Origin: Phoenix dactylifera
Taxonomy: Eukaryota > Streptophyta > Magnoliopsida > Arecales > Arecaceae
Direction: 5' to 3'
Assembly: GCF_009389715.1 (NCBI RefSeq)
Contig: NW_024067680.1
Span: 806,001 to 870,000, forward strand
DNA length: 64,000 nt
The position numbers were made by a program, and so were the translations under genes. Each line of letters opens with the position of its first letter. Position 1 is the stretch's first letter. Under the pieces are notes generated by a model, which ran no database searches, was not told the DNA's origin, and worked only from the letters and a program-made list of their open reading frames with translations. Below, piece by piece: positions 5,801 to 44,350 of this stretch.

Positions 5801-8195
5801 GCACATTAGAAGGGGGAGGGGGTGGCTTACCTTTGCCGATATCCTCAAAATAAATACCTCTCTTCTTTGGCTTAGGACATGTAGCCTCTAATGCACACGC
5901 CACTTTAGCAATCTCTAGATTATCATCTTTACTTGTCCCTGCACTCACTAAACAAGTCTCAAGAGGTTCTTTAGTATTTTCAGCCTTAAAAAACTCTCTG
6001 GTCGACTCATCTACAACATCAACTCGAAAAACATGATCAGTAAAAGAAGGATATTTAGTAGCTTCAAATAAATTAAACTCTACCTCTTCTTCACCAACCT
6101 TCAAAGTCAACCTACCATTCTTAACATCTATGATAGCTCCAGCTGTGGCTAGAAAGGGCCGGCCTAAAATGATAGGGATCTCGGTGTCTTCTTCCATCTC
6201 CAAAACAATAAAATCAACTGGAATGATAAACTTCTTTACCTTGATCAGCACATTCTCAAGAATACCTAAAGGATATTTGACCGATCGATCAGCTAGCTGC
6301 AAAGAGATGGTAGTAGGCTTTAACTCCTTCAATCCAAGCTTCCTAGATACAGATAAAGGCATTAGTGAAACACTAGCACCTAAATCACACAAAGCTCTAG
6401 AAAAATCAACATCACCTATAGTACAAGGAATAGAAAAACTCCCTGGATCTCTTAGCTTTGGTGGAAGCTTATTCTGGATAATGGCACTGCATTCCTCCGT
6501 CAAGGCAATGGTCTCGAAATCTTCCAATTTCCTCTTCTTAGACATGATCTCCTTTAAAAATTTTGTATATGCAGGAATTTGTGCTAAGGCGTCTGCAAAA
6601 GGAATATTAATGTGAAGCTGCCTAAACACTTTCAAAAATTTCTCAAACTGTTGATCAATTTTATTCTGCTTAAGCCTTTGAGGAAAAGGAATGGGAGGAA
6701 CATAAGGTTCGACTGGTGGTAGTGGGGATGGTGTCTTGGCTAGGTCCTCAACTTCTTCACTGACCTTCTTGTTCACCTCTTCATAGTCTACTTTATCACC
6801 AACTATAGTCTCACCACTTACCTGACCAAGTTGCTTACCACTTCTCAAGGTGACTGCCTTGCAATGCTCCTTCGGATTGACCTCTGTCTTACTAGGCAAA
6901 TTACCCTGTCCACGAGAATTGATGGAATTGGCTAACTGCCCCAATTGAATCTCCACATTTCTATTGGAACTCGCCAACTGGTCAACCTTTGCTTCCAGTC
7001 TCTCAAATCTCTCTGAACTGGCATTGGCTAACTTCTCAATAGCTATCTCCCAAGACTGTTTACTTTCTGGTTGGGATGGTTTTGGTTGGAAACCAGGAGG
7101 ATGGAGAGGTCTAGAACTGCTACCTTGGTTACCTTGATCTTTCCATGAAAAGTTAGGATGATTCCTCCATCCTGGGTTGTATGTGTTGGAATAAGGGTTG
7201 TTCTGCTGTTGCTGCCTGTTATAATTAGACACAAATTGAACCTGCATACAATCAGAACTCATGTGAGCTCCTCCACAGCAATCACAACTCAATACAGGAC
7301 TAGAAACGGAATTCACATTACCTAGCTTACCGAACATTTTTACTAGAGAATCAACCTTGGCATTCAACATGTTTATGCCATCTACATCATACATACCTGG
7401 AACTTTCTTAGGCATACATCTTTCATTAGACCACTGATAATTGTTAGAGGCCATTTCTTCTAACAACTCATATGCCTCTTCTGTTGACTTACTCATTAAA
7501 GTACCTCCTGCAGCTGCATCTATAGTAATTCTGACTGAATGTGTTAATCCATTATAGAAAGTCTGTACAATCAGCCAATCAGGAAGACCATGATGTGGAC
7601 ACTTCCTCTGCAAATCCTTAAACCTCTCCCAGGCTTCATACAAAGATTCACCATCAAACTGAGCAAAACTGGTAATATCATTTCTAAGTTTGGCAGTCTT
7701 ACCTGGGGGAAAATACTTACTCAGAAAAGCTTGTGACAAGGCATTCCAGGTGGTGAAAGAGTTAGGCGCTTTGGAATTCAACCAGGCCTTGGCTTTATCC
7801 TTTAGAGAAAATGGAAAAAGTCGGAGTCGAATAGCATCATCACTAACTCCATTCATCTTGATTGTATCACAAATCTCCAAGAAATTGGCAAGGTGTGCAT
7901 GTGGATCCTCAGAAGGTCCTCCACCAAACTGCTCCTGCTGCACCATCTGGATGAGACCAGGCTTAATCTCAAAATTATTAGCATTGACTGTAGGTCTCAC
8001 AATACTGGGTTGAGCACCATTGACATTCGGCACTGCATAGTCACTCAACAACCTTTTATTCTGGTTATCTTGATTATCTGCCATGGCTACTGCTTGTTTT
8101 TGCTTTAGCTCTAATCTTTGTTGTTTCCTTAATGCTCGTAGGGTTCTCTCAATTTCTGGATCAAAAGGCTCAATTAGCTCACAGTTTCGTGGCAT
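2892..8195 (-). CDS. gag-pol: Athila gag-pol polyprotein, intact
   Basis: A single 1767-codon frame encodes the whole retrotransposition polyprotein. In order there is a retrotransposon gag domain (about residues 75-235), a CCHC-like zinc knuckle ([13 protein letters not shown], about 305), an aspartic protease whose active site reads CDLGAS rather than the usual DSGA or DTGA (about 601), a reverse transcriptase with [10 protein letters not shown] and catalytic FMDD (about 1048), an RNase H with CDAS (about 1195), and an integrase. The integrase has an HHCC zinc finger (about 1402-1448) and DDE residues in GIDFMGP, SDEGSH and NGQVE (about 1470, 1532 and 1568). The ATG at 8195 lies just downstream of the primer site. 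There are no internal stops or frameshifts, so the protein could be functional. The protease Asp-Leu-Gly is a variant worth noting. Confidence 0.93.
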
Positions 8196-8286
8196 ACACT
8201 AAATATAGAAAACGTAAATTAACAAAAAGAACAAAACAGTCTAAATTAATGCAGAAAATTATTTGTATTGATATTAAAAACAATCC

Positions 8287-22063: not shown

Positions 22064-25000
22064 CTACTGGTAATACACCCGTAGGTTAGCGGAATTCCAG
22101 CTCCTTGGAATTTCTCGACCATCTAGGGCCTCCAACTGGTAGGAGCCAGGTCGGTTTACCCAGCGAACCCTATACGGGCCTTCCCAATTTGGCGCCAGCT
22201 TCCCACCTTCCGCGGGTTGAGATGCTTTGGCTCGCCTTAGCACCAGATCTCCGATTCTGAAAAGTTTTGGTCGGACCTTGGAGTTATAATATCGGGCCAC
22301 CCTCCGCTGATACATCGCCATCCGAACCTGCGCCATTTCCCTCGCTTCTTCCAAGAGGTCCAGGTTTCCTCGGAGTTGCTCCGAATTGGCCTCGGGTCGG
22401 TGCGTAGCCACCCGGGGCGAGGGGAGTCCGAGCTCCACGGGGACAACCGCTTCCGTGCCATAGGTTAGGCTGAAAGGCGTCTCCCCGGTAGGGGTCCGAT
22501 GCGTGGTCCGATACGCCCAAAGGACGTTCTCGAGTTCTTCGACCCAAGCTTGCCCCGTCCGACCGATTCGCGCCTTAATTCCTTGGAAGATTGTCCGGTT
22601 TGTCACCTCGGCCTCACCGTTGGTTTGGGGATGCGACACAGATGTGAACCGATGCTCGATCCCGAACTCTTCGCAGAAGTCACGGAAATGCTTGTTGTCG
22701 AACTGTCGACCATTATCCGAGATGAGGACCCGGGGTACCCCAAATCGGACAATGATGTTTTTCTTTACGAACTTCCGGACTTGCGCCTCCGTGATAGTGG
22801 CCAGCGGCTCTGCCTCCACCCACTTGGTGAAGTAGTCGATTGCAACAATCAAGAATTTCCGCAGGGCGGAAGCGACGGGGAATGGTCCGAGGATATCCAT
22901 TCCCCACTGTGCGAAGGGCCAGGGTGCGGTGATTGGTGCCAAGGGGACAGAAGGGACTCTCTGGACGTTGGCGTGGCGCTGGCAGGCATCGCATTTCCGT
23001 ACGTGATCCTTTGAGTCCTCCAACAAGGTAGGCCAATAATAGCCTTGCCTCATGATCTTGTGCGCCAAGGACCTAGCCCCCGAGTGCGATCCGCAGACGC
23101 CCTCATGGACTTCGCCAAGGACGTAGGCCGCCTCCGAGGGGCGGAGGCACCTTAAGAGGGGGGCGGTAAACGAGGTCCGATACAGCCTCCCTTCATAGAG
23201 TACGTAGTGGGCGGACTTCCTGACAAGTCGCCGAGCTTGATCTTCGTCTTCAGGGAGGATCCCTTCGGCGAGGTAGGCGACGAGCGGGTCCATCCAAGAC
23301 GGCTCCGGATCAATCGCCATCACTGCTCCAGCCTCGCCGATGCCCGGGGCATCCAGGGTCTCCAGGTAGATTGCCCTCGACAAGTTGTGCGCCTCTGCGC
23401 CCACCAAGCGGGACAATCTGTCGGCCCTGGCATTTTCGCTTCTGGGGACCTGCTGGATGCCGACACTGCCGAGGTCGGGAATGAGTGCTTGCACCTTCCG
23501 GATGTAGTTCTGCATGGTCGGGCTCCGGGCCTCAAACTCCCCACGGACCTACCCGACCACCAGCTGGGAGTCGGTGAAGACCTTCAAACGCCGGATGCCG
23601 AGCTCTCCGGCGAGTTTGAGTCCCGTGACTAGGGCCTCGTACTCCGCCTCGTTGTTGGTCACTGGAAATCCAAACCTCAAGGCATACTCGGCTATCACTC
23701 CATCAGGACTGGTAACGACCAGCCCGGCCCCTCCACCCTCGGGGTTCGACGACCCATCGATGTGAAGCGTCCAGGTCGGGAGGTCGAGGCTGGGCGTTTC
23801 CGGTGGACTAGGTTCCGCCTCCTACACCGTGCACTCAGCGAGGAAGTCCGCGAGCACCTGGGCCTTGATGGCGGGTCGAGGCTGGTAGCGGATGTCGAAC
23901 TCACCGAGTTCTACTGCCCACTTCACCAGCCGTCCCGCATTCTCGGGGTTGCTGAGGATCTGTCGTAGTGGTTGATCAGTTAAGAGGGTGACAGAATGGG
24001 CCTGAAAATAGGGGCGGAGCCTCCTGGTCGCGGTCAGCAGCGCGAAGGCGATCTTTTCAGCCTTCGTATACCGCGTCTCGGCGTCCCGTAGGACCCGGCT
24101 GATGTAGTACACAGGCTTCTGGAGCTTTGCCTCTTCCCGAATCAGCACCGCACTGACCGCGGTTGGGGAGACCGCCAGATAGAGGTAGAGCATCTCCCCT
24201 TCTTGCGGCTTGGACAGTAGGGGAGGAGACGCCAGGTATTCCTTGAGCTGGTCGAATGCTGCTTGACATTCGGCCGTCCAGAGGAAGTCTTTCGGGCGTT
24301 TTAACACCTTGAAGAATGGTTGGCAGCGTTCGGCCGATTTTGCCATAAATCGTCCGAGCGCGGCGACCCTTCCAGCGAGCTCCTGAACTTCCTTTACTTT
24401 GGTCGGAGGGGACATACCTTGGATGGCCTTGATTTTGTCCGGGTTGGCTTCGATACCCCGTTGGTTGACAATGAAACCAAGGAACCTCCCGGCCGAAGCG
24501 CCAAAGGCGCACTTCGCTGGGTTCAGCTTCATGCGAAACTTCCGTAAGGTGGTGAAAGTCTCCTCCAGATCCACAATGTGCTGGTCTGCCTGGCGGCTCT
24601 TCACCAGCATATCGTCCACGTACACCTCCATGTTCCGGCCGATTTGCTCTTTGAAGATTTTGTTGACGAGGCGCTGGTAAGTGGCGCCAGCATTCTTCAG
24701 ACCGAAGGGCATTACCTTGTAGCAGTACAGCCCCCGGTCCGTTATAAAGGCAGTTTTCTCCTCGTCCTGTGGGGCCATCATTATCTGGTTGTAACCGGAA
24801 AAGGCGTCCATGAAAGACAGCAGCTGATATCCGGAAGTCGCGTCGACCAGTTGGTCTATCCGCGGAAGCGGAAAGCTATCCTTAGGGCACGCCTTGTTCA
24901 GGTCGGTATAGTCGACGCACATCCTCCACTTCCCGCTCGCCTTCCGGACAAGTACAACATTTGCCAGCCACTCGGGGTAACTCACCTCCCTTATGAATCC

Positions 25001-27532
25001 TGCCTCCAAGAGTTTGTCTACCTCCTGGTCGACCACCCGGATCCGATCCGGGGCACAGTGTCTCTTCTTCTGCTTCACTGGCCGGTGGGTCGGGTCGACG
25101 TTGAGGGCGTGAGAAATGACCTCCGGGCCGATCCCAGGTACATCGGCCGCCGACCAGGCAAATACATCGGCATTGGCTCGGAGGAATTCCACCAACCGGG
25201 CCCGAGCTCCCGGGTCGAGATTGGCGCCGACCCGGACCACCCGGTCCCGGCGGCCTTCCTCGAGGGGAACTTCGACCACACCCTCGGCCGGCTCCCCCTG
25301 CCGCAAGGCCACCTCGTCTCTGGCATCAAGGGACTCGACGCTTAGGGCTTCTGCGGGCTTCTTCCCTTTGAGGGTCGCTAGGAAACATTGCCGTGCAGTC
25401 GGTTGGTCGCCTCGGACCTCCCCGATCCCGACCGCCGTGGGGAACCGCATGAGCAAGTGGTACGTAGAGACCACCGCGCGAAGGGCGTTCAGTCCGGGTC
25501 GTCCGAGGATAGCGTTGTAGGCCGAGGGAACACGGACGACCAAGAACCCGAGTCGCACCGTGGCTTTTGCGGGTGCGACGCCCGCAGTCACAGGCAGCTC
25601 AACGACACCTTCCGCCGGGACAGCGTCACCGGTGAATCCTATGAGGGGGGTGGATATTTTGTGCAACAATTGTCTGGACAAGCCCATCTTTTGGAAGGCC
25701 TCGTAAAACAAGATATCAGCTGAGCTTCCACTATCCACAAGAACACGCCTTACATCATAGTTTGCCATAGTGAGGGAGATCACCATGGCGTCATCGTGGG
25801 GGGTCTGAACCCCCTTTACATCCTCATCACAAAAGGTGATTACATTGCCGACCCTCTGCCTCTTTGCGACGGCCGCCCCTGACGCCTCCGTCGAGCCCCC
25901 TGCGTTCCTCACGGGCCGGGGGCAGCCCCCAGTGATAGTGTGGATCACCCCCGCAACGGGTCGATTCTGCTCCCGAGGCTCCGGAGGAGCCGGGTCGGCC
26001 GGACGCGGGTCTGCGGGGGGACGTCGGTCGCTCACATATCGACCGAGATGCCCCCGACGGATGAGAGCCTCGATCTCATCCCGAAGCTGGAAGCAGTCCT
26101 CTGTGTCGTGGCCGTGGTCTCGGTGGTACTCACAGTACGCCCTGGAGGGCCTCTTCCCAGGTATCCTCCGCATCTGTCTCGGGGCCGGGAGGTCCTCCCG
26201 CCCCTTGATCTCCATAAGGATCTGGGCCCGGGGAGTCAGGAGAGGGGTGTACCGGTTGAAACGTCGGGGCGGAGAACGAGGGCGTGGGGCGCCGTGGTTC
26301 TTCGCCGGCGACGGGCTTCTGCGCCGACGCTGGGGCGTCGGGCTCCTCCTCTGGCGTGCCTCTTTCCGCCTTTTCTTCCCAAGCTTTGGAGGGATCTCGA
26401 CGGCCTCCTTGCTCCGGTGGGCGGCCGCCTCCTCGGCGTCCGCATACTGGTTCGCCCGAGACAACAGCTCTGGGAAGCTCCGCGGCAGGCGTTTGTCCAG
26501 GGAGAAGGTGAGTCTGCCCTTCCGGAAGCCACGCTTCAGGGCTGAAAGAGCTACCTCCTGACTCAGGTTCCGGACCTCCAGCGTAGCCCTGTTGAAGCGG
26601 GTAAGATAATCCCGCAGGCTTTCTCCCTCGTTTTGCCGGACATCAAAGAGGGAGTCGGAGACCAGTCGCCGCCGGCTACTGACGGCGAAATGAGTGATGA
26701 AGAGGCGGGTGAACTGGTCGAAGGACCGAATTGAGTCAGCCTCCAGCCCGGCGAACCACGCCCTCGCCGGGCCACGGAGGGTTGCCGGGAAAGCCTTACA
26801 GAGAAGGGGATCTGATGCTCCGTGGAGGAGCATAAGGGTCCTGAAACTCTCGACGTGATCCCGCGGGTCCGCCGCCCCGTCATAGGGCTCGATCGCCGGC
26901 ATTTTGAACCCCGGCGGATTCGGGGTCCGCAGGATCCTCGAGGTAAGCGCCGGCTGGGAGAAGATCTCTAAGTCGGCGAAGGGATCTTTGGAATGGCCCT
27001 TCAGGACCTGGAGTTGTCGGTGGAGATCGTCCACCCGCCGGTCCAGGGAGCGCGACCGGTGGGTGGGAGACAAGGAGCGGCGAGAGGGAGACCGACTGGA
27101 GCGCGGGTTCCTCGAGGACTGGGGGGTCTGGGAACGCGCCCGGGCCCGCCTCTCGTACCCCGCGCAGCTCCGGTGGGAAGGTCCCGGCAGAATGGAGCGT
27201 GCTCGAGAATCCTCCTCGCGCCGGCGCTCCTCCCCATGGGAGAGGAAGGAGCGCGGGTTGAGGAGGACAGGCGAACGCTCAGGCAGCGGCGGCTCCTGAG
27301 CCCACTGCGGCGCCCGGGACATCGCACCCTGCAGATTCTGCACCGCCTCCGCGAGGGTGCGAACCTGCTAGGTTAGCTGGTCGAACTGGGCGGCTTCGAC
27401 CGTCTGAATGGGCGGTGGGGCGGTGGAGTGTTGCTGAGAGTGTGTCGGAGATGCAGCGGCCTCCCGGCCAGAGGCGCGAGAGGCCCCACGACCGGGAGCA
27501 TTGGAAGCTCCACGACTACCTCGCCGTGCCAT
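22064..27532 (-). pseudogene. gag-pol: Tat gag-pol broken by three in-frame TAG codons
   Basis: One frame runs from the ATG at 27532 to 22064 with TAG at 27368-27370 (near the gag N-terminus), 23822-23824 (after the first RNase H) and 23549-23551 (in the second RNase H). Otherwise it is complete: gag core with ARAWFAG (about residue 258), zinc motif CEYHRDHGHDTEDC (about 470), protease VDSGSSADI (about 600), reverse transcriptase with FMDAFSGYNQ and YVDD (about 910 and 972), RNase H (about 1100-1210), a second RNase H with HIDGSS (about 1257), and integrase with HHCC (about 1480-1514) and DDE residues in GMDILGP, SDNGRQ and NGEAE. The dual RNase H is a Tat hallmark. At least two of the ambers sit where a glutamine is expected, so CAG to TAG changes are likely. 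The element can probably move only with help. Confidence 0.88.
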
Positions 27533-30745: not shown

Positions 30746-30836
30746 AACCACCTCCTCGCCACTTTCTCGGCGAACTCACCAAAGCACCCTTCTTGCTTCA
30801 ACCTTTTAGTTCACGGTATCAACGAAGGAGAAAGAG

Positions 30837-31124
30837 ATGGCGTCTGCGAGGAGTGTTTCTTTGATTGTGGCAGCAAGCGTGGGGACCGTGGAAGCTCTCA
30901 AGGATCAAGCGGGACTTTGCCGATGGAACTATGCCCTGAGGTCTCTCCAACGGCGAGCCAGGAGTAGTGACATGGGATCGGTAGCTCAGGCCAGAAGGAT
31001 GTCTTCTTCTTCTTCTTCTATTGTTGAGAGGATGAATGGAAGGGAAGGGATCGATGAGAAGACCAAACGGTCTGAGGAGTCACTTAGGAAAGTCATGTAC
31101 TTGAGCTGTTGGGGTCCCAATTAG
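30837..31124 (+). CDS. Wound-induced DUF3774 protein, copy 2
   Basis: This 95-residue single-exon gene starts MASARS and ends VMYLSCWGPN. It carries the family motifs VEALKDQ and CRWNYALRSL, and a Ser5 run in the middle, with a basic, charged segment (ERMNGREGIDEKTKRSEESL) before the end. It is most like copies 1 and 4. Promoter spacing (182 bp from the conserved block to the ATG) and the GAGAAAGAG-type leader are as in its paralogues, which fixes the start. Confidence 0.92.
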   Translation: MASARSVSLIVAASVGTVEALKDQAGLCRWNYALRSLQRRARSSDMGSVAQARRMSSSSSSIVERMNGREGIDEKTKRSEESLRKVMYLSCWGPN

Positions 31125-32464
31125 AGAACTGTGGACGCTGAATTCTGTTGGGTTTTTGTGTTCTCGTTTATGGGACATTTGTAATTGTAAATTTTGAGTG
31201 CATATTAAGATATTTTGGAATTGGTCATCATTTTCGTTCTTCTCTTGATTTGGGAGTGCATTCTAAGGCTATATTATCTTTGGATTTTGCTGCGACAAGA
31301 TACTTTGATTACAAAAACAAAAGAAGATGATTATATTTTTTTAAGAGAAAGACTGTTAGGACGCTATCAATGAACCACTCCCCATCTTCGTTACTCCAGC
31401 GGGTTGGGGATTATTTTCTCCTCATCCAATGTAATGGACTAATAATGCTGTTCCTCTCGCTGGAAATGGCTTGATTTCTTGCCCAACAAATGAAAGGTTT
31501 TCGATGGGCAGAGGGATTTGGGTCGCAGCATGAGCAACCATTGTACCAAAAAAAAATTTGTTAGGGTTATTGTTTTTTTTAAAAAAAAAATTTCTTGAAC
31601 ATGTCAAGTTCAGATGTTTCTTCTTTGACCTGAATAAGGTGGGATCTCACCATCTAATATTTGGAACCTTGGAACTCCTTTGAATGAAAAAAAAAACCAA
31701 AAAATATTAAAAATAAATCAAATTATAAAATACATGTAGAATTATTACATAAATTAATTTATTAAAAATAAATAAGTAATTAAATAAATAATTTGCTTGG
31801 GTAGGTTTGGTTTAAATAAATAATACATAGTATATCTGTTCTACCAAAAAAATTATAAATCGTGCCCAAGCTTTAGATGTACAGACTCGGGACAAGTCTG
31901 GGTAGGGCTGGATTTACAGGATTTAAGAATAATCCTAGAACAATGGTCAAAAACATGTCAAAAATAAATTTTGAGTTAATAAAATAACATTTTGTGGACA
32001 ATAACATATTTTATGACATTGTTAAAACTCTAATATAATTTTTTAAAAAACATCCTGGAATCTAAACTAGATGTACAATCTAGGTGGGATCAACTCAAAC
32101 ACACCGCCTAACTAGCTCATTAGATAGTGTTGAGTCAAGCATTTACAAATTCGAGTCTAGGGAAGGCCTAACAATCCCTACCGGCCTTACTTAAATTAGG
32201 TTAGAATTGGTCATTAATCCAACCCAAACCTGACCAACCTGATCCAATTCAAGATATAAATAAATAATTAATTTACATATATGTTTTTAATTGCTTAATA
32301 TGATTGAGATCTCAAACATTATCTTTAATTTAAATTTATCATCAATTTAATGCAATATCATATATTAAAGGCGATCAAAAATACTTGAAGAGCTGCCTCC
32401 CTTCAAACAATAATAACGAGGGAAACGTATGGGCAAAATGGAAACTTCACCCCAAAAACCACCC
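31125..32464. other. AT-rich intergenic DNA
   Basis: After the 3' untranslated region the sequence is very AT-rich with many short A and T runs. I see no gene or structured repeat. Confidence 0.6.
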
Positions 32465-32473
32465 CTCGGAACC

Positions 32474-32522
32474 GGGTAGTTCTAAATACACCCCCCCGAT
32501 TGCTCAGGACACCCCCCAAAAA
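32474..32522 (+). repeat. Left terminal inverted repeat of the MULE
   Basis: It is identical over 49 bp to the reverse complement of 39724-39772. Diverged partial copies of the TIR follow at about 32547-32582 (TACACCCCCCCATTTGCTAA) and 32636, so the left end carries tandem TIR-like units. Confidence 0.95.
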
Positions 32523-32950
32523 TTAAAAAAAAATTAAATACTCTCTACACCCCCCCATTTGCTAAGGACACCCCTAAAAAAATAAAAAATCCTAAATTAC
32601 CCTTCACCCTCCCCACCCCCTCACCTAAATTGCTCTCTACACCCCCCAAACCCCCCCCCCCCCAACCCCGCTCTTCCCCTCCAAAACTCCACTCCAGCCG
32701 GCTTCTCCCTTCCGCCCAAAAAACTTCGCCTCAAGCACCTCGCCGGCGGCCAAACCCCCTCCGTCTCCCCCTTCTCCCTCGCCCAAAACCCCCCCGTTCC
32801 CCCTTCTCCCTCTCGTCGCCGGCATTCTCCCCTTCTCCCTCTCGTCGCCGGCATTCTCCCGGAACCACCTCCCCGGCCATCTCCCGAGCAACGAGCACCT
32901 CGCCGGCGCCTCCACGACCACGTCGAGGTAGCTCCCCGCCCCCCCGCCTC
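32523..32950. other. C-rich left arm of the MULE
   Basis: A strongly C-biased plus strand holds the TIR-like copies and a short tandem duplication (CTCTCGTCGCCGGCATTCTC twice, around 32812-32850). It probably contains the transcription start and 5' UTR of the PMD gene, with a possible donor CGAGGTAGC at about 32928. Confidence 0.5.
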
Positions 32951-33256
32951 CAGTGCTCCGTTCGGCACTGGATCGCCGAACAGAAGGGTTCTGTTCGGCT
33001 GAACAGTGCCGAACAGAAGCCCTCTGTTCGGCAACACTCAACCGAACAGAAGCCTTCTGTTCGGCTGCACGGTGCCGAACAGAAGCCTTCTGTTCGGCTG
33101 CACAGTGCCGAACAGAATGGTTCTGTCCGGCTCTGAGCAGCCGAACAGAAGCCTTCTGTTCGGCTCTGTGCAGCCGAACAGAAGCCTTCTGTTCGGCACT
33201 GTGCAGCCGAACAGAAGGGTTCTGGTGCGTGCCGTGCTGAATTTTGTGCCGAACAT
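32951..33256. repeat. Left subterminal palindrome array of the MULE
   Basis: About seven units of GCCGAACAGAAG facing CTTCTGTTCGGC alternate with short spacers such as TGCACAGT, period about 36 bp. Each full unit is a palindrome with one central base. The whole array is repeated in inverse orientation at 39176-39425. It probably lies in the 5' UTR intron of the PMD gene (acceptor TTTTCAG at 33318). Confidence 0.9.
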
Positions 33257-33320
33257 TTATGTATGCAATTGAATTATTTTCTTTGATATAGCCTAACATT
33301 GAATTTCTATATTTTCAGAC

Positions 33321-35235
33321 ATGGATCCCCGTCCCGCCAGAGTTAGACCTACGGCGTCAGCTAGGAGACGTCGTGCTAGGATTGCTTCTCCCGAGCCTGC
33401 TCATATGCCATTGGACTCTCCTGAGTCAGAGCATGATGATATGCCCGCTAGGGGCGAAGACGATGAGTCCGTTGGACCATGTCCAGGAGGTCCAGAGGAT
33501 GAGTCCGTCCTGATCAGTTTCAGGACGCATATAGCAGCTTCCATCTGGAGGCAACAGGTATTGTTTATTTGTTATAGCATTATATTTTGTTTATTGATGT
33601 TTTATAAAGTAGTAGTAATTATACATTTATATTACAGGAACGAGCTCCACTAAAGTGCATGAACCATACTGCCAAGGTTGGTGAATGGAAGTGGTGGTCT
33701 TCAAACCAACCAAATACCAGGTTCAGAGCACTATTGAGGCAGTCGGGCCTCGTAGAGTTAGTACAGTGCTCTTATCGATTCATCGATAAGATTCTGATTT
33801 CGGGCTTCGTAGAGAGATGGCAGCCCGAGACGAACACCTTCCATATACCATTTGGCGAGATCACTATCACGTTGGATGATGTATCCGCCATTTTAGGGAT
33901 TCCTGTCGCAGGTTCCTCAGTATCAGTTTCTCCTGAGAGGATGAGTGATCGGGATGCTGAGGAGCTACTTGTGGAGTTGTTGGGGGTGTCAGCTGGAGAC
34001 GCGCGTCAGGAGGTACTGTCATCGCGCGGTCAGTCTGTGAGGATGGAGTGGCTGAGGACTCAGTTTCACTCTGTATCTGATAGAGACAGGCAGCAGAGGA
34101 TAGAGTGTGCAGCACGAGCCTATTTGTTATTTTTGTTAGGCTGCACACTCTTTGCTGATAAGAGTGGGACCAGGGTGCCTATAGCGTATCTGTGTTTACT
34201 GCGGGATCTGGATAGGGTGAGCACATATGCCTGGGGTACAGCTGCCTTAGCATATTTGTATCGGCAGTTGGGGATTGCGTCGAGGTCATCAGTGAGACAG
34301 ATCAGTGGTTATATGACGCTTCTGCAGGCATGGATTTATGAGCATTTTCCAGCACTCAGTCCTCACCCGTCGCTCGAGTATACTGATGCCAGTCCCCGCG
34401 TGCACCGCTGGATGCCCGGTACTCCATCCCGTACCACGATGGACCATTTAGTGGTTCTACGTGAGTCATTGGACCTTTTGAGCATCGATGAGGTACGTAT
34501 CATATTACCATTTGCTTGTGTTTGTCAGTACATTTAATATGCGATATAGTATAAAACTGAAATGGACCTTTTGTTTTACAGGTTATTTGGGATCCCCATC
34601 ATCGGCTTCGGGGAGATCGCCCATATATACCCGTCGCATTTTTTAGTGGCTCCATCAAGTGCCTTGATATCGTAGAACCCTATCATCCAGAAAGGGTTCT
34701 TAGACAGTTTGGTCGTATTCAGACCATCCCTCGAGCGCCACTAGCCCCTACGCGAGCCAACAGAGGTTCCACAGCAGGCTCGTACCGGATACATTACTCC
34801 TATATGGATCAGCTTTGGGAGCGGTGGGAGGACCACGTGCTGAGCCAGGCGAGCAGGAGCCACCCAGTTACCCGGCCATCAGACAGCGTACCGGGATACA
34901 TGGAGTGGTATCTCCGTATCACGCACGTTGCAGTTCAGCCTCCTCATCTGCGCTCGAGTACTCATTCTGGAGCTAGGGGAGGTCATGATGATGCTGACAT
35001 GCACCGGCGGCGTAATGCAGCTGCACTCGGTATCAGTACCGACATTGTACGGATGGGTCCCTCAGAGGCTACGTCACTAGGTGCCGGGCACCTATATGAT
35101 GCTATTTCTCAGATGCATCAGGTACTTCTGGGTGATGAGCCTGGCCCGAGTACAGCACCCTCTCATTCGGATCCAGGACCCTCTCATTCAGACGTACAGC
35201 AGTACACGCGTCGACGATGGCGTCATAGGGATTGA
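33321..35235 (+). CDS. PMD (plant mobile domain) protein encoded by the MULE
   Basis: Three exons join in phase 0: 33321-33557, 33638-34492 and 34582-35235, giving 581 residues. Introns are GT-AG (donors CAGGTATT and GAGGTACGT, acceptors ATTACAG and TTTACAG). Exon 1 encodes an Arg-rich then acidic leader. The rest is a PMD domain: hallmarks include the FHIPFGEITITLDDVSAILG segment, the LLGCTLFADKSGTRVPIAYL segment and WGTAALAYLYRQL. A Ser/Pro-rich tail ends in a basic RRRWRHRD. PMD proteins occur in host genes (MAIN, MAIL1) and in transposons; host members are needed to silence transposons in Arabidopsis. What the transposon version does is unknown. The 3' end with two GTAATCTTTGTAAAGCCT copies (about 35249 and 35308) follows. 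Confidence 0.9.
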
Positions 35236-35412
35236 TGATGGAGCCTTTGTAATCTTTGTAAAGCCTTTGATATTAATGAAAAATATATATTTTTGGTACA
35301 TTTACGTGTAATCTTTGTAAAGCCTGGCCCGTTCTATTTTACACAAATATAACAGTGCACATAACAATCAATCTAACAATGCGAAGACAGATATTTTTTG
35401 ATTTATATTGAT

Positions 35413-35467
35413 GATGGAGTTTCAAAAATTGTACATATATAAACAATCAATCTAACTCTACTGTCTT
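35413..35467 (-). repeat. Duplicate of the transposase terminal exon end
   Basis: This matches the transposase stop region: GATGGAGTTT here corresponds to about 35893, and the AAAATTGTACATATATAAA to CTACTGTCT part corresponds to 35945-35988. A gap of about 39 bp has been lost in this copy. The duplicate and the original bracket the captured AGO4/DRM block. Confidence 0.85.
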
Positions 35468-35489
35468 GCCTCCACCTCCCCCTGAGGAG

Positions 35490-35694
35490 ATGGAGTCCCG
35501 TGGGGGGTTTGACCCTGAATCTGATACGACTGATGTTCTGCCTCCACCTCCCCCTGAGGTACCTCCAAATGTTGTTCCAATCAAAGCTGACCCTGGACAA
35601 AGTTCCCCTCCAAAAAAGGCAGCAAAGCCTAAGAGGGTGCCAGTGGCAAGACCTGGCCTTGCAAGGAGAGGGCAGCCGATTAACCTCTTAACCA
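35490..35694 (+). pseudogene. AGO4-like: Captured 5' coding fragment of an AGO4-clade Argonaute
   Basis: From an ATG the frame reads through LPPPPPEVPPNVVPIKAD, then KPKRVPVARPGLARRGQP and INLLT. This is the typical N-terminus of AGO4/6/9 Argonautes (LPPPPP-x-PPN, then R-x-P-x-AR-x-G and GQ-x-I-x-LLTNHF). It breaks off just at the LLTN position. Only about 68 codons are present, without the PAZ, MID or PIWI domains, so it cannot act as an Argonaute. A 20-bp run, CCTCCACCTCCCCCTGAGG, occurs both at the left junction (about 35469) and inside the fragment (about 35540), a likely template-switch scar. AGO4 proteins carry 24-nt siRNAs in RdDM. Confidence 0.85.
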
Positions 35695-35722
35695 AGAACA
35701 TCACAGAGCCCTCTTTTCCAAC

Positions 35723-35890
35723 AAATGTGTTAATCATCTGCTCAAGCTTGTCACCGTTAAGTTCTTGTACATCAGAAAGGTCTATTAGTTCCCCTGTTTG
35801 ATTTGTTTGCTCCCACCAGCTCTTAAGTATGTTTCTGTTTACATCTGAAATCTCAACGGAAACAACAGTCGTCATATGTATTCCCAGCTG
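35723..35890 (-). pseudogene. DRM-like: Captured fragment of a DRM de novo DNA methyltransferase
   Basis: On the minus strand the frame runs LGIHMTTVVSVEISDVNRN, then ILKSWWEQTNQTGELIDLSD and ends at LEQMINTF. DRM2-type enzymes have VVSVEIS-x-VNRNILK followed by WEQTNQTGELI just before the catalytic GGSPCNN motif, so this is a piece of the methyltransferase fold that stops short of the catalytic cysteine. There is no start codon of its own. A linker (35695-35722) joins it to the AGO4 piece. The two pieces face each other. DRM enzymes place RdDM-directed methylation on transposons. Confidence 0.87.
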
Positions 35891-35968
35891 ATGATGGAGT
35901 TTCACAGTACATGACTCTAAGAGCCCCAAAAAATTTACAACTTTCAAAAATTGTACATATATAAATAA

Positions 35969-38900
35969 TCAATCTAACTCTACTGTCTCGCTAATTATAA
36001 CATTAGGTGAGATGCTCTCTTTGAACTGTTGAATCCGTGCTTCATATGAATTTTCCCATCCGGTAGCACAAGGAAGATGATATTTTCGCCAGTTGGTCGC
36101 TACTGGCGGAACGGGATGTCCCGGCAACAAGAACACCTTCAAAATTAGAAATAAGAAAATATTAATAGCTACAAAATTATAAATAAGCAAAATTAAATAA
36201 GCAAAATTAAATATTCGCAAGTGTTGTGAACGTAGTACCTCAACAAAATGATTTCCATTTACGAATCCGATAGCGATATCTTTGCGGGATAGAAGAGGTA
36301 CTGGCACAGAACGGAGAGGTAGGAAGGTCAGACATTGTTGCAACGAGAGATGGTATAGGACAACATTATAGCAGGATGCTATAAGATGACCCATGTCCGG
36401 CATAGTCATCCATCTGTCATATGGTGGACAATCATCATAATATGATAATGCATGAGTGATCTCAGCAATCGTCCCTTCCACACCATATAATGTGCGATAG
36501 TGGTCCGAATGACATTGCAACTCTTGCAATAAATCCTTCCTAACACGCACCCAGTCATCTTCTCCAAATCCCAGTAAGTCAGCTATTGCCCTAAATCCGC
36601 AATTCCCATCAGCTTTTACATCCTTGATATGCTGGATGTATGGTCTCAAGGCAGAAGGAATAGCATCAATATAGATAATGGGCGTATGTGACTGGGCTCT
36701 AGTACGAAAAATCTGCAAATAATATCAAATGATAGAAAATATGTAACAATGGCAGAACATGTCCCGTATCGGCACATCTCGGCACGGCACATCCCGTATC
36801 GGCACATCTCGGCACGGCACATCCCGTATCGGCACATCTCGGCACGGCACGTCCCGACATGTCCCGTATCGGCACATCTCGGCACGGCACGTCCCGACAT
36901 GTCCCGTATCGGCACATGACATACCGGCATGGCACGGACCGTCCCGTAGACGTTGTGATACCTATTGTAAGGAAATAAATATTTGGTACTTACCTTTTGC
37001 TTGGGCCGTCTCTTTTGAATCTGAGTAGATGGATTGCGGATGGTAACTTTCTCAACACCAGGTGAATAACTATCCTGTCCAGATAGAACCAACTCAAACG
37101 CAGACGGGTCACGTCGAGTAGACGTATCAACCTTCAGTGAAGCGCGCCCACGTGAACCGGTCTTCCGTTTTGCAGGCTCTAAAAGAGGTGTACTATCTGG
37201 ACTTGCAATCTCTCGTAACTTTTTGATCATCTGCAATTGAGAAGCCCCATCTAACTTCTTGAATCGTAGCGCAATCAAATCTAACTCTGCATCACAACTC
37301 AACTGAATTGGCTGCACGGGGGGGGTAGGCAGAATATCAAGTTTCCTCCAATGAGGATCTATGCAGTCGAGAGGAATGGGCCGACCTTCCACCCTGTACC
37401 GCGCAATCTGGTGAGCACATGGTATACCATGTGTGCGTCGAATAGCGCACCCACAATTTGAATCATCAAACCCAACTGAATTGGCTCGTTTCGATTGGGC
37501 GAGGACATGATTTAACGCACTTATAGATATGAAACCTCGCAACTCTTTGAATTCAGCTGGCTTGAAGTTGTGCTGCACTACCAATAAACTCTTCTCCAAT
37601 GAGGCTTTAACGGAGCTGTGCTGCAACTCAATCAATCCATGTATTCTAGTCCAAGATGACTCGAAACTTCCTTGGCTTGATCCAAGCTGCTTTTTGAGCT
37701 TTGCATGTGCACTCTCGACCCTAGTAAACAAATGAAAGTTAGATATAAGAATTGAGGCAAATTAAATTTAAATGAGTCTTTATTTGTGATACCTATTTGT
37801 CGTCACATTTCCGTAGTGCCTGCATGTATCAGTCCACGCCGCAACAAATCTTTCCTTGTATTTGCTCAGCCAAGTATCTGACACATACTGTAGTGCATCT
37901 GGATAGGTACCGAACTCTCTCTGCAGTGCACTCCAGCGATCATTATACTCGTCTTCCGTGGAGGACAGCACTAGTACATTCCAACTCATAATAAATTTAT
38001 CCCATTTCTCCTTCAATTCGAAAAATTTTTTGCACTTGGCCAAAACATTCCTACTAATATGCCATCTACATAATAAATGTCTAGCAGTAGGAAATACTCT
38101 ATGAATTGCATTCATCAAAGCCAAGTCTCTATCTGTAACAATCAACTCAGGCAAAACATCATCAGCTATGACACTGCGCAATCTCTCTAATGCCCAAGTA
38201 TAGCTTTCTTCCCCCTCAGAATTTAAGTATACAAAAGCAACTGAAAATGTCATGTCAGTAGATGTCACCCCCACAATCTCTAAGAGCGGAAGACGATACC
38301 TATTCGTCTTGTACGTGCAATCCATTATCAACACACGGGGAAATGCACGGAACAAATCAATGCTGCCAGGGTGTGCCCAAAATAAGTCATGCACAACATC
38401 CGTATTAGTACAATTCCTATGCCACTCAATATATTTAGCCTCTGATAATTTACCTAATAGATGTTGCATTTCAGACCTCCCGGCTTTCTCTGCAACCTTA
38501 AACCGTTGACGTACATTGTAGATAGTCTTGATAGTCGTAACATTGAGGGCATCTCTTTTCTTCAATGTGGATAATATGTCCTTTGGACGAACCAAACTCT
38601 TCGACATATCCACTAACAATTCCGTCTCCTGCTCAGATAATCTCCCTGCATATGAGTGCCCCTCCAGATTCTCTGCAGCGGGATGATTGTGCACTCCACA
38701 TACGACCAGTAATATCCAATCATCCGCAGTATCCAATTTCTTTCCTCTTAATGCAAAAGGGCATCCACACTTCTTTGTCCCACAGGCAGTCTTTATTCGC
38801 TTTTCTTTTGTGGTTCGGTACGTCCCACCCCTCTCACAACCTAACGTAATTCTGGGTTTCTTAGAAATGGTACCTGCATCGGATGATTTGATTACAACAA

Positions 38901-39509
38901 CAAAACCATTTCGCCTCCCAGCTTCACGACACCAATTACACAAGTCCTCTCTACTCTTGAAGATCTATACATTAAACAATTTATGTAAGTACACAGTTGT
39001 AAAAATAGCTCGCTAAACTAATACAAAATTGCACAATATATTATAATACCTCGTAAGTTGTAAATTCGCTTGTGTAATCCAGTACAAATTCTGATCCAAT
39101 TATACTCGATTCGGTTGTAGCATAGCCCTACATATAAAATAATTTATCACCAAGAATTAATGAATCAGAGGATCTGTTCGGCACAAAATTCAGCACGGCA
39201 CGCGATTTGGCACGAGAAGGCTTCTGTTCGGCTGCAGAGTGCCGAACAGAAGCCTTCTGTTCGGCTGCAGTGTGCCGGACAGAAGCCTTATGTTCGGCAC
39301 TGTGCAGCCGAACAGAAGCCTTCTGTTCGGTAGAGCGTTGCCGAACAGAAGGCTTCTGTTCGGCACTATGCAGCCGAACAGAAGCCTTTTGTTCGGCGAT
39401 CCAGTGCCGAACGGAGCACGAACCGTGAAAAAAAAAAACTTTCGAAACAAGGTGGAACACGTACCTTTGCGGCCGATTCTTCGTCCCAAATCACTAGTTG
39501 CTTGTCCAT
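35969..39509 (-). CDS. FAR1/MULE transposase fused to an OTU protease domain
   Basis: Six exons on minus join in frame to 887 residues: 39509-39465, 39127-39050, 38964-37793, 37720-36994, 36712-36239 and 36136-35969. All introns are GT-AG. Domains in order: FAR1-type zinc-finger region (CGCPFAL ... HNH, about 105-137); MULE transposase core with acidic residues in LIMDCTYK, VTDRDLA and RVESAH (about 257, 321 and 434); SWIM zinc finger CGCAIRRTHGIPCAH (about 520-535); then an OTU cysteine protease with DGNCGF (Cys near 711) and GNHFVE (His near 829), followed by FLLPGHPVPP. OTU proteins remove ubiquitin; why a transposase carries one is unknown. The first ATG lies outside the palindrome array, which falls in intron 1. 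Intron 5 (102 nt) is a multiple of three with no stop and could be retained. Confidence 0.88.
36761..36947. repeat. CGTATCGGCACATCTCGGCA repeats in transposase intron 4
   Basis: A 30-bp unit (CGTATCGGCACATCTCGGCA followed by CGGCAC...) repeats three times, then in a 40-bp form with an inserted CGTCCCGACA-type segment. The unit GGCACGGCAC also occurs at the inner edges of the two subterminal arrays. It lies between exons 4 and 5, so it is not coding. Confidence 0.85.
39176..39425. repeat. Right subterminal palindrome array of the MULE
   Basis: This is the inverted counterpart of 32951-33256: the outer end (GATCCAGTGCCGAACGGAGC) and the inner end (GGCACAAAATTCAGCACGGC) both match as reverse complements. 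It has about six palindromic units and lies in intron 1 of the transposase gene. Confidence 0.9.
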
Positions 39510-39723
39510 GCTTCGAATGGGGCTTAAATCTCCTTCAAAGATCGCCTAAACGATGTAAATGGATCGAGGGGTTTAAGGGGGGTTTGAGGGGTGGTTTTTT
39601 TTTTCCTTTTCAAAACGAAACGGAGGAGGAGACGGAGGAGGAGGAAGGGGGGTGTACTGAGAAAATTTCAAGGGCAATATGGTAATTACACTAAAGGTTA
39701 GTTTGGGTATTTTTTTTTTTTGG
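39510..39723. other. Right arm of the MULE, probable transposase promoter
   Basis: From the transposase ATG outward the minus strand is pyrimidine-rich (the plus strand has GGAGGAGGAGACGGAGGAGG near 39620) and ends in T/A runs next to the TIR. No clear TATA box is seen. Confidence 0.4.
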
Positions 39724-39772
39724 TTTTTGGGGGGTGTCCTGAGCAATCGGGGGGGTGTATTTAGAACTACCC
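39724..39772 (-). repeat. Right terminal inverted repeat of the MULE
   Basis: Reverse complement is identical to 32474-32522 over 49 bp. The 9-bp target duplication CTCGGAACC follows directly. Confidence 0.95.
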
Positions 39773-39849
39773 CTCGGAACCGGACCTCAGCCCCTGCTTT
39801 CATTTGGCCAACCACGCGGTACCGCCAGCCACGTACTAGCCTGTAAACA

Positions 39850-39968
39850 AACGACCACGCCCCCGGGATCCAGGAAATACGGGGAAAGAAACCAAAACCA
39901 GCAGTACTTAGCCCCTGGTTTTCTCTCGTGCCACCTCTCCCGTTCCTTCCATTGGCGGCTTTATATAC
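39850..39968 (+). promoter_or_regulatory. Promoter of DUF3774 gene 3
   Basis: The shared block is at 39850-39879 (CGCCCCCGGGATCCAGGAAA), diverged at its edges. The second block (CCTGGTTTTCTCTCG) is near 39915 and the TATA box (TTTATATAC) at about 39960-39968. The MULE ends only 77 bp upstream of the block. Confidence 0.75.
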
Positions 39969-40075
39969 CCCCCATTTCCTTCCACCAACCTCGTCAAAGC
40001 AATCTCCACCGAAAGCACGCTACTTTCTTCCATTAAAATCTTCTCTGGTTTCCCAGCGTTAGAGAAAGAGAAGAG

Positions 40076-40339
40076 ATGGCCTCTGCAAGCAAGGCTTCTT
40101 TGATCGTAGCGGCAAGCGTAGCGGCAGTAGAAACGCTCAAGGATCAAGCAGGGCTGTGCCGATGGAACTACGCCTTGAGGTCTCTCCACCAGCGAGCCAA
40201 GAGCAGCGTGGGATCTTTAAGTCAAGCCACCAGGATGTCTACCTCCATTGAAAGGAGCATTGGGAAGGTGGAGAGAGCGAAGAGGAGGGAGCAGACACTG
40301 GAGAAAGTCATGTACCTGAGCTGCTACGGGCCCAAATAG
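40076..40339 (+). CDS. Wound-induced DUF3774 protein, copy 3
   Basis: This 87-residue single-exon gene starts MASASKASLIVAAS and has VETLKDQ and CRWNYALRSL. It is the most diverged of the four similar copies: the serine run is missing, and the C-terminus reads VMYLSCYGPK where the others read CWGPN. Promoter and leader (AGAGAAGAG before the ATG) match the paralogues, so it is probably expressed. The changes at the otherwise constant C-terminus may mean altered function. Confidence 0.9.
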   Translation: MASASKASLIVAASVAAVETLKDQAGLCRWNYALRSLHQRAKSSVGSLSQATRMSTSIERSIGKVERAKRREQTLEKVMYLSCYGPK

Positions 40340-43300: not shown

Positions 43301-43841
43301 GAGAATTTGTCCCTTCTTTGCTCCAGTATAGCTTTTTACAAAAGCCAATTTATCATTATAATCGAAGAAAAAGCACAATATTATCAATTTAAATAACTAT
43401 TCATCAAATAAAAACTATTCTGAAATATCACAAAACGTTAATTCAAAAATATTATTTATGAACAATAAAAACATCAACCAATGCTCCATCAGAATTCTTT
43501 GTCACAGTCATCATTAATATAATATCATGTAGATGAATGCCTTTAAAACTGGCATTATTTTAAATATGAGACCTAATTAAAGTTGGGTCCCAAGTCCAAG
43601 TTGGCTGGGGTGCTTTCCACCTGCACTCACGTATCACTGCACGGCATATGCAGCTACCGTTCGCCACCAACCCACGTCGCTGCCCGTTTCCTGAGGTCTA
43701 ACTAAAAGCTTACAAGGAACCAGGAGCCCTCAGTATGCGGCAAAGTGGCAAACTTCCACCTACCTTCCTTGGCACTGATGAACCTTTCTTGTTGTTGAGA
43801 CGTCTGTTTCCAGTTAGCTTGCTTATTTAAATGATAAACAA
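40340..43841. other. Long AT-rich intergenic stretch
   Basis: I find no intact gene. Around 42075-42260 there is a more GC-rich stretch with an open frame (SLACLFEEFKSKCMSHLTSD is part of it) that may be a gene fragment I do not recognise. The stretch 41840-41900 (CAACATTCTTCCACTTAAGC) resembles the tails of some retroelements. Both are weak. Confidence 0.4.
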
Positions 43842-43966
43842 AACAACATAGCCCCCGGTATGCAGGAAACCATGGAGCCCAAAGCTGCAATACCAGCAGC
43901 AGCTCTCCCACTGTTTTCTCCCATCCCTCCTCTTCTTATCCCATCTTTCCTACTGCCTTTATATTG
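43842..43966 (+). promoter_or_regulatory. Promoter of DUF3774 gene 4
   Basis: The shared block is at 43842-43871 (AGCCCCCGGTATGCAGGAAA), the ACTGTTTTCTCCCATCC block near 43908, and a TATA box (TTTATATTG) at about 43958-43966. Confidence 0.77.
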
Positions 43967-44065
43967 CCATGGCCATCCCCACTTTATCATCAAGCTCACC
44001 AAGGCAGACAACTTTGTTGCACTAAGATCTTCTTCAGATTCACAATACTAGGAGGAAGAGAAGAG

Positions 44066-44350
44066 ATGGGCTCTGCGAGCAGGGCTTCTTTGGTTGTGGC
44101 AGCGAGCGTGGGGGCAGTGGAAGCTCTCAAGGACCAAGCAGGGCTGTGCCGATGGAACTATGCCATCAGGTCTCTAAACCATCAGGCGAAGAACAGCATG
44201 GATTCCTTCTCTCAGGCCAGGAGGATGTCTTCTTCTTCTTCTTCTAATATTGATAGGAGGAAAGGAAGGGAAAGGGTTGATGAGAAGGCCAAGCGATGCG
44301 AGGAGTCGCTGAATAAAGTCATGTACTTGAGCTGTTGGGGTCCCAACTAG
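44066..44350 (+). CDS. Wound-induced DUF3774 protein, copy 4
   Basis: This 94-residue single-exon gene reads MGSASRASLVVAAS, then VGAVEALKDQ, CRWNYAIRSL, a Ser5 run and VMYLSCWGPN. It is close to copies 1 and 2. An in-frame ATG at 43964 overlaps the TATA region and is not conserved, so the start at 44066 is preferred. Confidence 0.92.
   Translation: MGSASRASLVVAASVGAVEALKDQAGLCRWNYAIRSLNHQAKNSMDSFSQARRMSSSSSSNIDRRKGRERVDEKAKRCEESLNKVMYLSCWGPN

What the first reader, a model, noticed from the sequence alone, without database searches (positions are those of the whole stretch)
35468..35892. A MULE has captured pieces of two RdDM genes, AGO4 and DRM
Between the stop codons of its two genes, an apparently autonomous MULE carries the N-terminal coding part of an AGO4-clade Argonaute (35490-35694, plus) and a piece of a DRM methyltransferase domain (35723-35890, minus). 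Both host genes act in the same pathway, RNA-directed DNA methylation, which silences such elements. Capture of random fragments by MULEs is well known, but two pieces from one defence pathway in a 0.4-kb block is unexpected. In rice, a CACTA-borne miRNA (miR820) targets DRM2, so a transposon acting on this enzyme through small RNA has precedent. A counter-silencing role here is inference.
Basis: partly seen in the sequence, partly recalled or inferred. Interest (0 to 1): 0.96.

Follow-up and report, generated by a model that had tools for sequence, protein, structure and literature searches.

The report
Transposon carrying host silencing-gene fragments
In the date palm, a jumping gene has picked up pieces of two genes that plants use to silence jumping genes and has spread them to dozens of places, but some sister copies without the pieces look just as young, so whether the pieces help it is an open and testable question.

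Summary
The window (date palm) contains a 7.3-kb MULE with 60-nt TIRs (58/60 matching), a perfect 9-bp target duplication, a plant-mobile-domain gene and a transposase gene. Between their stop codons lie 210/211 nt of an AGO4-type Argonaute exon (plus) and 173/176 nt of the last DRM2 exon (minus). Both parents are annotated genes in the same genome. The block is one version of a changing cassette found at 82 or more places, at least 51 with AGO4. DRM with an unidentified 232-nt piece (X) came first, probably in a 3-kb Pack-MULE (L062); AGO4 was added once, replacing part of both. Flanking repeats, shared junction bases and a slipped 21-nt copy suggest template-switching repair. Of 100 family copies classified, 39 carry the cassette and 61 do not. 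Empties on the same backbone are as young as AGO4 bearers (0.51% median difference in both), although empties taken together are more diverse (1.5-2.0%). The capture is real, recent and amplified; nothing shows that it helps the element. The block probably lies in the transposase 3'UTR, giving AGO4 antisense RNA. A counter-silencing role is possible (about 0.2) and untested. It extends the miR820/DRM2 precedent: a new variant of a known kind.

The parts
32474..39772 (.). MULE element, 7299 bp, flanked by a perfect 9-bp target duplication CTCGGAACC (32465-32473 and 39773-39781)
32474..32533 (+). left terminal inverted repeat, 60 nt (58 of 60 match the right one)
39713..39772 (-). right terminal inverted repeat, 60 nt
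33321..35235 (+). plant mobile domain (PMD) gene, ATG 33321, stop 35233-35235, with introns (gene model by eye)
   Evidence: Pfam PMD E 8e-58 and 2.1e-10 in two frames
37780..38964 (-). transposase exon frame: FAR1 and MULE transposase domains
   Evidence: Pfam MULE E 5.6e-27, FAR1 3.2e-6
35969..36724 (-). 3' exon frame of the transposase gene, OTU-protease-like (weak), stop 35969-35971
   Evidence: Peptidase_C65 E 0.024, below its cut-off; OTUD5 E 0.019, but an unrelated polymerase entry scored better at 0.0072
35420..35469 (+). left copy of a 50-nt direct repeat flanking the cassette (48 of 50 identical to the right copy); it repeats the 3' end of the transposase gene
   Evidence: 96-nt duplication in L004 and L022
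35942..35991 (+). right copy of the flanking direct repeat
35467..35487 (+). slipped second copy of an internal AGO4 stretch (same letters as 35539-35559), joined to the exon start at a short shared AGG
   Evidence: on the gene's strand of 20 kb around the host gene only the internal copy, one base different, was found
35485..35695 (+). AGO4 fragment: the exon with the presumed start codon (ATG 35490) of the host AGO4B-like gene
   Evidence: 210/211 identical
35691..35725 (+). remnant of piece X (X positions 110-144); shares 5 nt with AGO4 and 8 nt with DRM
35718..35893 (-). DRM fragment: part of the last coding exon (methyltransferase domain) of the host DRM2-like gene
   Evidence: 173/176 identical; PDB match E 1.6e-19

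Best explanation
This is a recently active date palm MULE family that captured part of its host's DRM2 gene and later part of its AGO4 gene. SHOWN: a DRM segment including 3'UTR, interrupted by a 232-nt piece X, occurs in a 3-kb non-autonomous member (L062) and, shorter, between the two genes of larger members; AGO4 was found joined to X at one and the same junction. INFERRED: the DRM segment was taken up first, then moved into the autonomous form by template-switching repair of a break near the transposase gene's 3' end, which duplicated the flank; AGO4 was added once by the same kind of event, replacing the DRM 3'UTR and part of X; the product was then copied by ordinary transposition. INFERRED effect: the block is transcribed as the transposase gene's 3'UTR (AGO4 antisense, DRM sense). 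This may yield small RNAs matching both host genes, but the cargo is most likely a passenger not needed for the family's success.
For: Annotated parents matched at 210/211 and 173/176. 9-bp TSDs for the window element and L062. L062 carries the longest DRM stretch seen plus X. AGO4 ends at the same base in 38 of 38 cassette rows (40 of 57 candidates scored) and joins X at position 110 in the 9 of 9 AGO4 cassettes annotated against X (L007, L040, L049, L063-L067, L095). DRM+X without AGO4 in types C, D, F. Flanking duplications, 5- and 8-nt shared junction bases and a slipped 21-nt copy. Empty-site siblings. Passenger status: 61 of 100 classified family copies lack the cassette; 17 of 47 empties read sit on the AGO4 bearers' backbone with the same median difference, 0.51%. 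Polyadenylation-like variants before the block on the PMD side (35275) and only after it on the transposase side (35409).
Against: Both identified cargo genes act in one pathway, which a pure-passenger account must call coincidence (roughly 1 in 1000 for the second gene, from recalled gene numbers). Empties taken together are more diverse than AGO4 bearers: median 1.53% for 21 and 2.0% for 28 against 0.51% for 33. AGO4 bearers form the largest tight cluster (32 of 33; the 47 empties gave 22 and 16). The order Pack-MULE first, autonomous element second could be reversed. Transcription of the block is not shown, and no canonical AATAAA was found between the genes on either strand.
Confidence: 0.68

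Rival explanations
1. Counter-silencing cargo: RNA from the block (AGO4 antisense and DRM sense in the transposase 3'UTR, or dsRNA from convergent read-through) yields small RNAs that lower AGO4 and DRM2 and so weaken RNA-directed DNA methylation of the family; selection kept both pieces.
For: 170 of 403 21-mers of the block match the host AGO4 exon perfectly and 109 match the host DRM exon. Two of two identified cargo genes are in one pathway. AGO4-bearing copies number at least 51, form one tight cluster and are less diverse than all empties together. Precedent: miR820 in rice CACTA elements, possibly derived from OsDRM2, targets OsDRM2 (PMC3459959, abstract and passages).
Against: Empty siblings on the same backbone are as young. 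No unusual hairpin. Several copies have a reduced or lost cassette (L063-L067, L084, possibly L076). siRNAs from such blocks may instead add methylation to element and donor gene. No RNA data here.
Confidence: 0.2
2. Camouflage: carrying near-perfect pieces of essential silencing genes penalises the host for making siRNAs against the element, because they would also hit AGO4 and DRM2.
For: The review PMC13317346 describes this 'camouflaging' idea for captured genes (passages). High identity to both parents.
Against: Only about 0.4 kb of 7.3 kb would be protected in this way. Same-backbone empty siblings are as young.
Confidence: 0.08
3. Both pieces come from one chimeric host locus or pseudogene that already joined AGO4, X and DRM, so there was one capture, not two.
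For: One fixed AGO4-X junction in the 9 AGO4 cassettes annotated against X.
Against: No such locus among the rows seen: the AGO4 query gave two host places plus 38 cassette rows (40 of 57 candidates scored); DRM gave the host gene, a distant paralogue and 31 cassettes (33 of 33 scored), and the host gene plus cassettes (40 of 92 scored); X gave cassettes only (40 of 81 scored; 26 of 26). DRM+X exists without AGO4. The capped lists do not exclude it wholly.
Confidence: 0.03

Closest known systems
Rice CACTA elements with pre-miR820 (PMC3459959; abstract and passages seen)
   Same: A DNA transposon carries a piece similar to, and possibly derived from, the host DRM2 gene; copy number rose in BB-genome species.
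   Different: There a miRNA represses OsDRM2, shown by experiment. Here there is no unusual hairpin, the element is a MULE, an AGO4 piece is added, and no effect has been measured.
Pack-MULEs (rice and others; review PMC13317346, passages seen)
   Same: Host gene fragments between MULE TIRs with target duplications; L062 is of this kind.
   Different: The window element has transposase exons and a PMD gene of its own; the cargo sits between them and varies among siblings.
Arabidopsis VANDAL/VANC anti-silencing MULEs (PMC10398659, abstract and passages seen)
   Same: TIR-type elements with a second gene and with tandem repeats in noncoding parts (that VANDALs are MULEs is recalled).
   Different: VANDALs have degenerate TIRs and an anti-silencing protein. 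Here the TIRs match at 58/60 and the second gene is a PMD gene; VANC was not compared.
TE-borne PMD-C domains (PMC7156037, passages seen)
   Same: The PMD gene; [quoted passage not shown]
   Different: That paper concerns the host proteins MAIN and MAIL1, not cargo capture. The PMD subfamily of the window gene was not determined.

Membership tests
Mutator-like element (MULE) | Mutator-type transposase | tested here: met
   Pfam MULE E 5.6e-27, FAR1 3.2e-6
Mutator-like element (MULE) | long TIRs and about 9-bp target duplication (feature recalled) | tested here: met
   60-nt TIRs, 58/60; 9-bp TSD CTCGGAACC
Pack-MULE (non-autonomous, gene-carrying) | host gene fragment inside MULE TIRs | tested here: met
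   AGO4 and DRM fragments
Pack-MULE (non-autonomous, gene-carrying) | no transposase of its own (definition recalled) | tested here: not met
   the window element has transposase exons; L062 matches only the last 33 nt of that exon stretch (38932-38964) and beyond
miR820-type transposon microRNA | stable hairpin precursor | tested here: not met
   fold of 35420-35991, z-scores -0.34 and -0.45; short local hairpins were not scanned one by one
miR820-type transposon microRNA | small RNA that cleaves the host mRNA | not testable with these tools
   no small RNA data
VANDAL/VANC anti-silencing MULE | degenerate TIRs | tested here: not met
   TIRs 58/60; feature from PMC10398659
VANDAL/VANC anti-silencing MULE | VANC-type protein | not tested
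   no VANC sequence was compared
Autonomous element | intact full-length reading frames of both genes | tested here: inconclusive
   domain exon frames are open; splicing and full-length frames not verified

The most novel reading that the evidence does not exclude
A MULE family has built, step by step, an RNA weapon against its host's silencing pathway: first a DRM2 fragment, then an AGO4 fragment placed antisense in the transposase mRNA's 3'UTR, so that every transposase transcript also carries RNA matching the pathway's Argonaute and its methyltransferase; this two-gene form gave the family's tightest burst of copies.
Probability: 0.2. Interest if true: 0.95.

Novelty: new variant of a known kind. 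Interest (0 to 1): 0.72.

Why it matters
Whether transposons exploit captured silencing-gene fragments rests, to my knowledge, on few cases, of which miR820 is the clearest. Here one young family in a crop genome carries pieces of two genes of one pathway at more than 80 places, with a reconstructable order of capture and equally young empty siblings on the same backbone. That is a natural experiment: small RNA, methylation and expression data, or date palm genotypes differing in cassette load, can separate counter-defence from hitchhiking. It also suggests cargo moving between a Pack-MULE, larger relatives and two backbones of one family.

Tried and rejected
Rejected: (1) chance resemblance, by identity to the parents. 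(2) A strong hairpin or miRNA precursor over the block; no Rfam family at gathering score in 32000-40000. (3) The 21-nt stretch before AGO4 as an upstream AGO4 exon: on the gene's strand of 20 kb around the gene only the internal copy was found, so it is read as a slip. (4) X as a third RdDM gene: it has a possible 33-codon exon-like stretch, but no protein relative was found (2 candidates, none at E<=10). All 26 rows fall at cassette loci. The 40 scored rows (of 81 candidates) also fall at cassette loci, by the pooling and by reading those seen only through X (L053-L056). X stays unidentified; a host source among unscored candidates is not excluded. (5) Lower variation of the block than of its flanks in 26 of 30 copies is not used as evidence of selection: those loci were picked by block identity.

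Literature: among the titles and abstract openings listed (12 of 213 shown) and 115 I saw no report of AGO4, or AGO4 plus DRM, captured by a MULE, nor of this date palm family. Only open-licence PMC papers are held. I read passages of five papers (PMC13317346, PMC3459959, PMC7156037, PMC10398659, PMC11986588) and no whole paper.

Full report
Origin of the window. It is G000:C33:806001-870000 in a 773-Mb assembly. The AGO4 and DRM parents on C1 are listed as Phoenix dactylifera proteins on a contig of exactly C1's length, so the genome is date palm.

The element. TIRs of 60 nt at 32474-32533 and 39713-39772 match at 58 of 60 and are flanked by a perfect 9-bp duplication, CTCGGAACC. On the plus strand is a plant-mobile-domain gene (33321-35235; Pfam PMD E 8e-58). 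On the minus strand is a transposase gene with FAR1 and MULE domains. Its last frame looks weakly OTU-like and stops at 35969-35971. The domain exon frames are open; full-length integrity was not verified.

The block. AGO4: 35485-35695, 210 of 211 nt identical to the exon with the presumed start codon of the host AGO4B-like gene. DRM: 35718-35893, 173 of 176 identical to the last coding exon of the host DRM2-like gene. Between them is a remnant of a third piece, X (35691-35725), sharing 5 nt with AGO4 and 8 nt with DRM. Before AGO4 lies a 21-nt slipped copy of an internal AGO4 stretch. A 50-nt direct repeat flanks the block (48 of 50); in L004 and L022 the duplication is 96 nt long. I read these marks as template-switching break repair (inference).

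Copies. A DNA search with the block gave 40 scored places at 98-100% (86 first-look candidates). A DRM query gave 33 rows: the host gene, one distant paralogue, and 31 further places, of which the 11 delivered as loci (L039-L049) are variant cassettes of this family. Pooling the rows, without the host places, gives 80 distinct cassette loci, 45 with an AGO4 or block hit; not all were read individually. L084 and L095 make 82. L046-L049, L067 and L095 bring those with AGO4 to at least 51. Types seen: A (window: AGO4 211, short X, DRM 176), B (L040: AGO4 211, X 123, DRM 361), C (L045, L050-L052: DRM 3'UTR 55-90, X 232, DRM 395 or less), D (L039, L041-L044: DRM 3'UTR 90, X 166, DRM 343 or less), E (L046-L049: AGO4 200, X 86, DRM 244 or less), F (L061 read, five similar rows: DRM 430, X 35, DRM 3'UTR 70). 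L046-L048 lack most of the transposase gene.

Order. L062 (C1:10477500-10484500) holds a 3.0-kb element of the same TIR family (left and right ends 93% and 87.5% like the window TIR) with a perfect 9-bp TSD, ATTCATCTT. It carries about 1.47 kb of the DRM 3' region with X inside, no PMD match and only the 5' edge of the transposase gene. The 9 of 9 AGO4 cassettes annotated against X join it at the same place, while DRM+X occurs without AGO4. So DRM+X most simply preceded AGO4. That L062 represents the first form, rather than a derivative, is inferred from its longest DRM stretch.

Control: siblings without cassette. A query for the uninterrupted site matched 40 of 40 scored places over all 356 nt at 99% (253 first-look candidates). 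An exact 26-mer next to the site occurs 133 times, reversed control 0. Of the 100 places listed, 37 lay at known cassette loci, 33 at places, and 30 were unknown. All 30 were read: 28 without cargo, one of which (L076) looks like loss of the cassette between the flanking repeats, and 2 with cassette (L084, DRM only; L095, A-type with a 140-nt insert of unknown source in AGO4). In total 39 carry the cassette and 61 do not. In the copies read I saw no other cargo at this site; some empties have a 46-53-nt variant stretch nearby in the PMD 3' flank.

Ages. Over 396 nt at the PMD gene's 3' end, 33 of 34 A-type copies (one dropped for coverage) have a median pairwise difference of 0.51%. Of 50 empties fetched, 47 covered the region: 17 lie within 3 differences of the A consensus, also with median 0.51%, and 30 lie at 8-15 differences. 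Against my reading: empties taken together are more diverse, 1.53% for 21 and 2.0% for 28 over a slightly longer stretch, and A forms one cluster of 32 of 33, larger than the empties' clusters of 22 and 16. Since loci were picked by similarity to the queries, diversity and cluster sizes are not a fair contest; the same-backbone comparison is the better one. By differences from the A consensus, B (2), F (3) and three of five C copies (2-4) sit near the A backbone, E in between (4-7), D (7-9) and two C copies (8, 9) near the other. So cassettes seem to have moved between backbones (inference).

How it may work. Among four polyadenylation-like hexamers tested, variants occur before the block on the PMD side (35275, 35282, 35346) but only beyond it on the transposase side (35409, 35291); canonical AATAAA occurs on neither strand between the genes. 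So the transposase mRNA probably carries the block, with AGO4 antisense and DRM sense (weak inference). Of 403 possible 21-mers, 170 match the host AGO4 exon and 109 the host DRM exon perfectly. There is no unusual hairpin. Small RNA crosstalk with both host genes is expected if the block is transcribed, but its direction (lower AGO4/DRM2, or extra methylation of the element and exons) is open. A review describes both silencing of donor genes and camouflage for captured fragments (PMC13317346, passages); a Brassica study discusses siRNA crosstalk (PMC11986588, passages).

Coincidence. With about 30 RdDM genes among about 28,000 (recalled), a second random capture from the same pathway has a chance near 0.001. 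This was noticed after the fact, and two further pieces (X, L095's insert) are unidentified. It is suggestive, not proof of selection.

Comparison. In rice, pre-miR820 in CACTA elements, possibly derived from OsDRM2, gives a miRNA that represses OsDRM2 (PMC3459959, abstract and passages). Here there is a MULE, two genes of the pathway, many copies, no unusual hairpin and no functional data. I saw no report of it in the listings.

Noticed in passing
L062 1113-4136 (G000:C1:10478612-10481635): A 3-kb Pack-MULE of the same TIR family with about 1.47 kb of the DRM2 gene's 3' region and piece X inside, flanked by a perfect 9-bp duplication.
   Followed up: yes
L095 (G000:C29:1113377-1114162): An A-type cassette whose AGO4 part holds a further 140-nt insert with an internal repeat; possibly another capture. 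The search for its source did not complete.
   Followed up: partly
L076 (G000:C2:18365554-18366339): A copy whose structure fits loss of the cassette by recombination between the flanking direct repeats.
   Followed up: partly
L045 1223-1454 (piece X): A 232-nt piece sitting in the DRM 3'UTR without loss of DRM bases; exon-like 33 codons between AG and GT, but no relative found in proteins or, among scored rows, outside cassettes.
   Followed up: partly
window 32897-33281 and 39130-39448: 33-nt tandem repeats rich in GTTCGGC near both ends of the MULE, matching each other in direct and inverted orientation.
   Followed up: no
window 36757-36945: Tandem repeats (CGGCACATCCCGTAT-like) in a presumed intron of the transposase gene; the length differs among copies.
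   Followed up: no
window 30810-31124, 40037-40339, 43838-44350: Three related short frames (wound-induced-protein-like, name recalled); the MULE lies between the first two.
   Followed up: no
window 2892-8198 and 22064-27367 (-): Long retrotransposon-like polyprotein frames (Ty3/gypsy type recalled from motifs).
   Followed up: no
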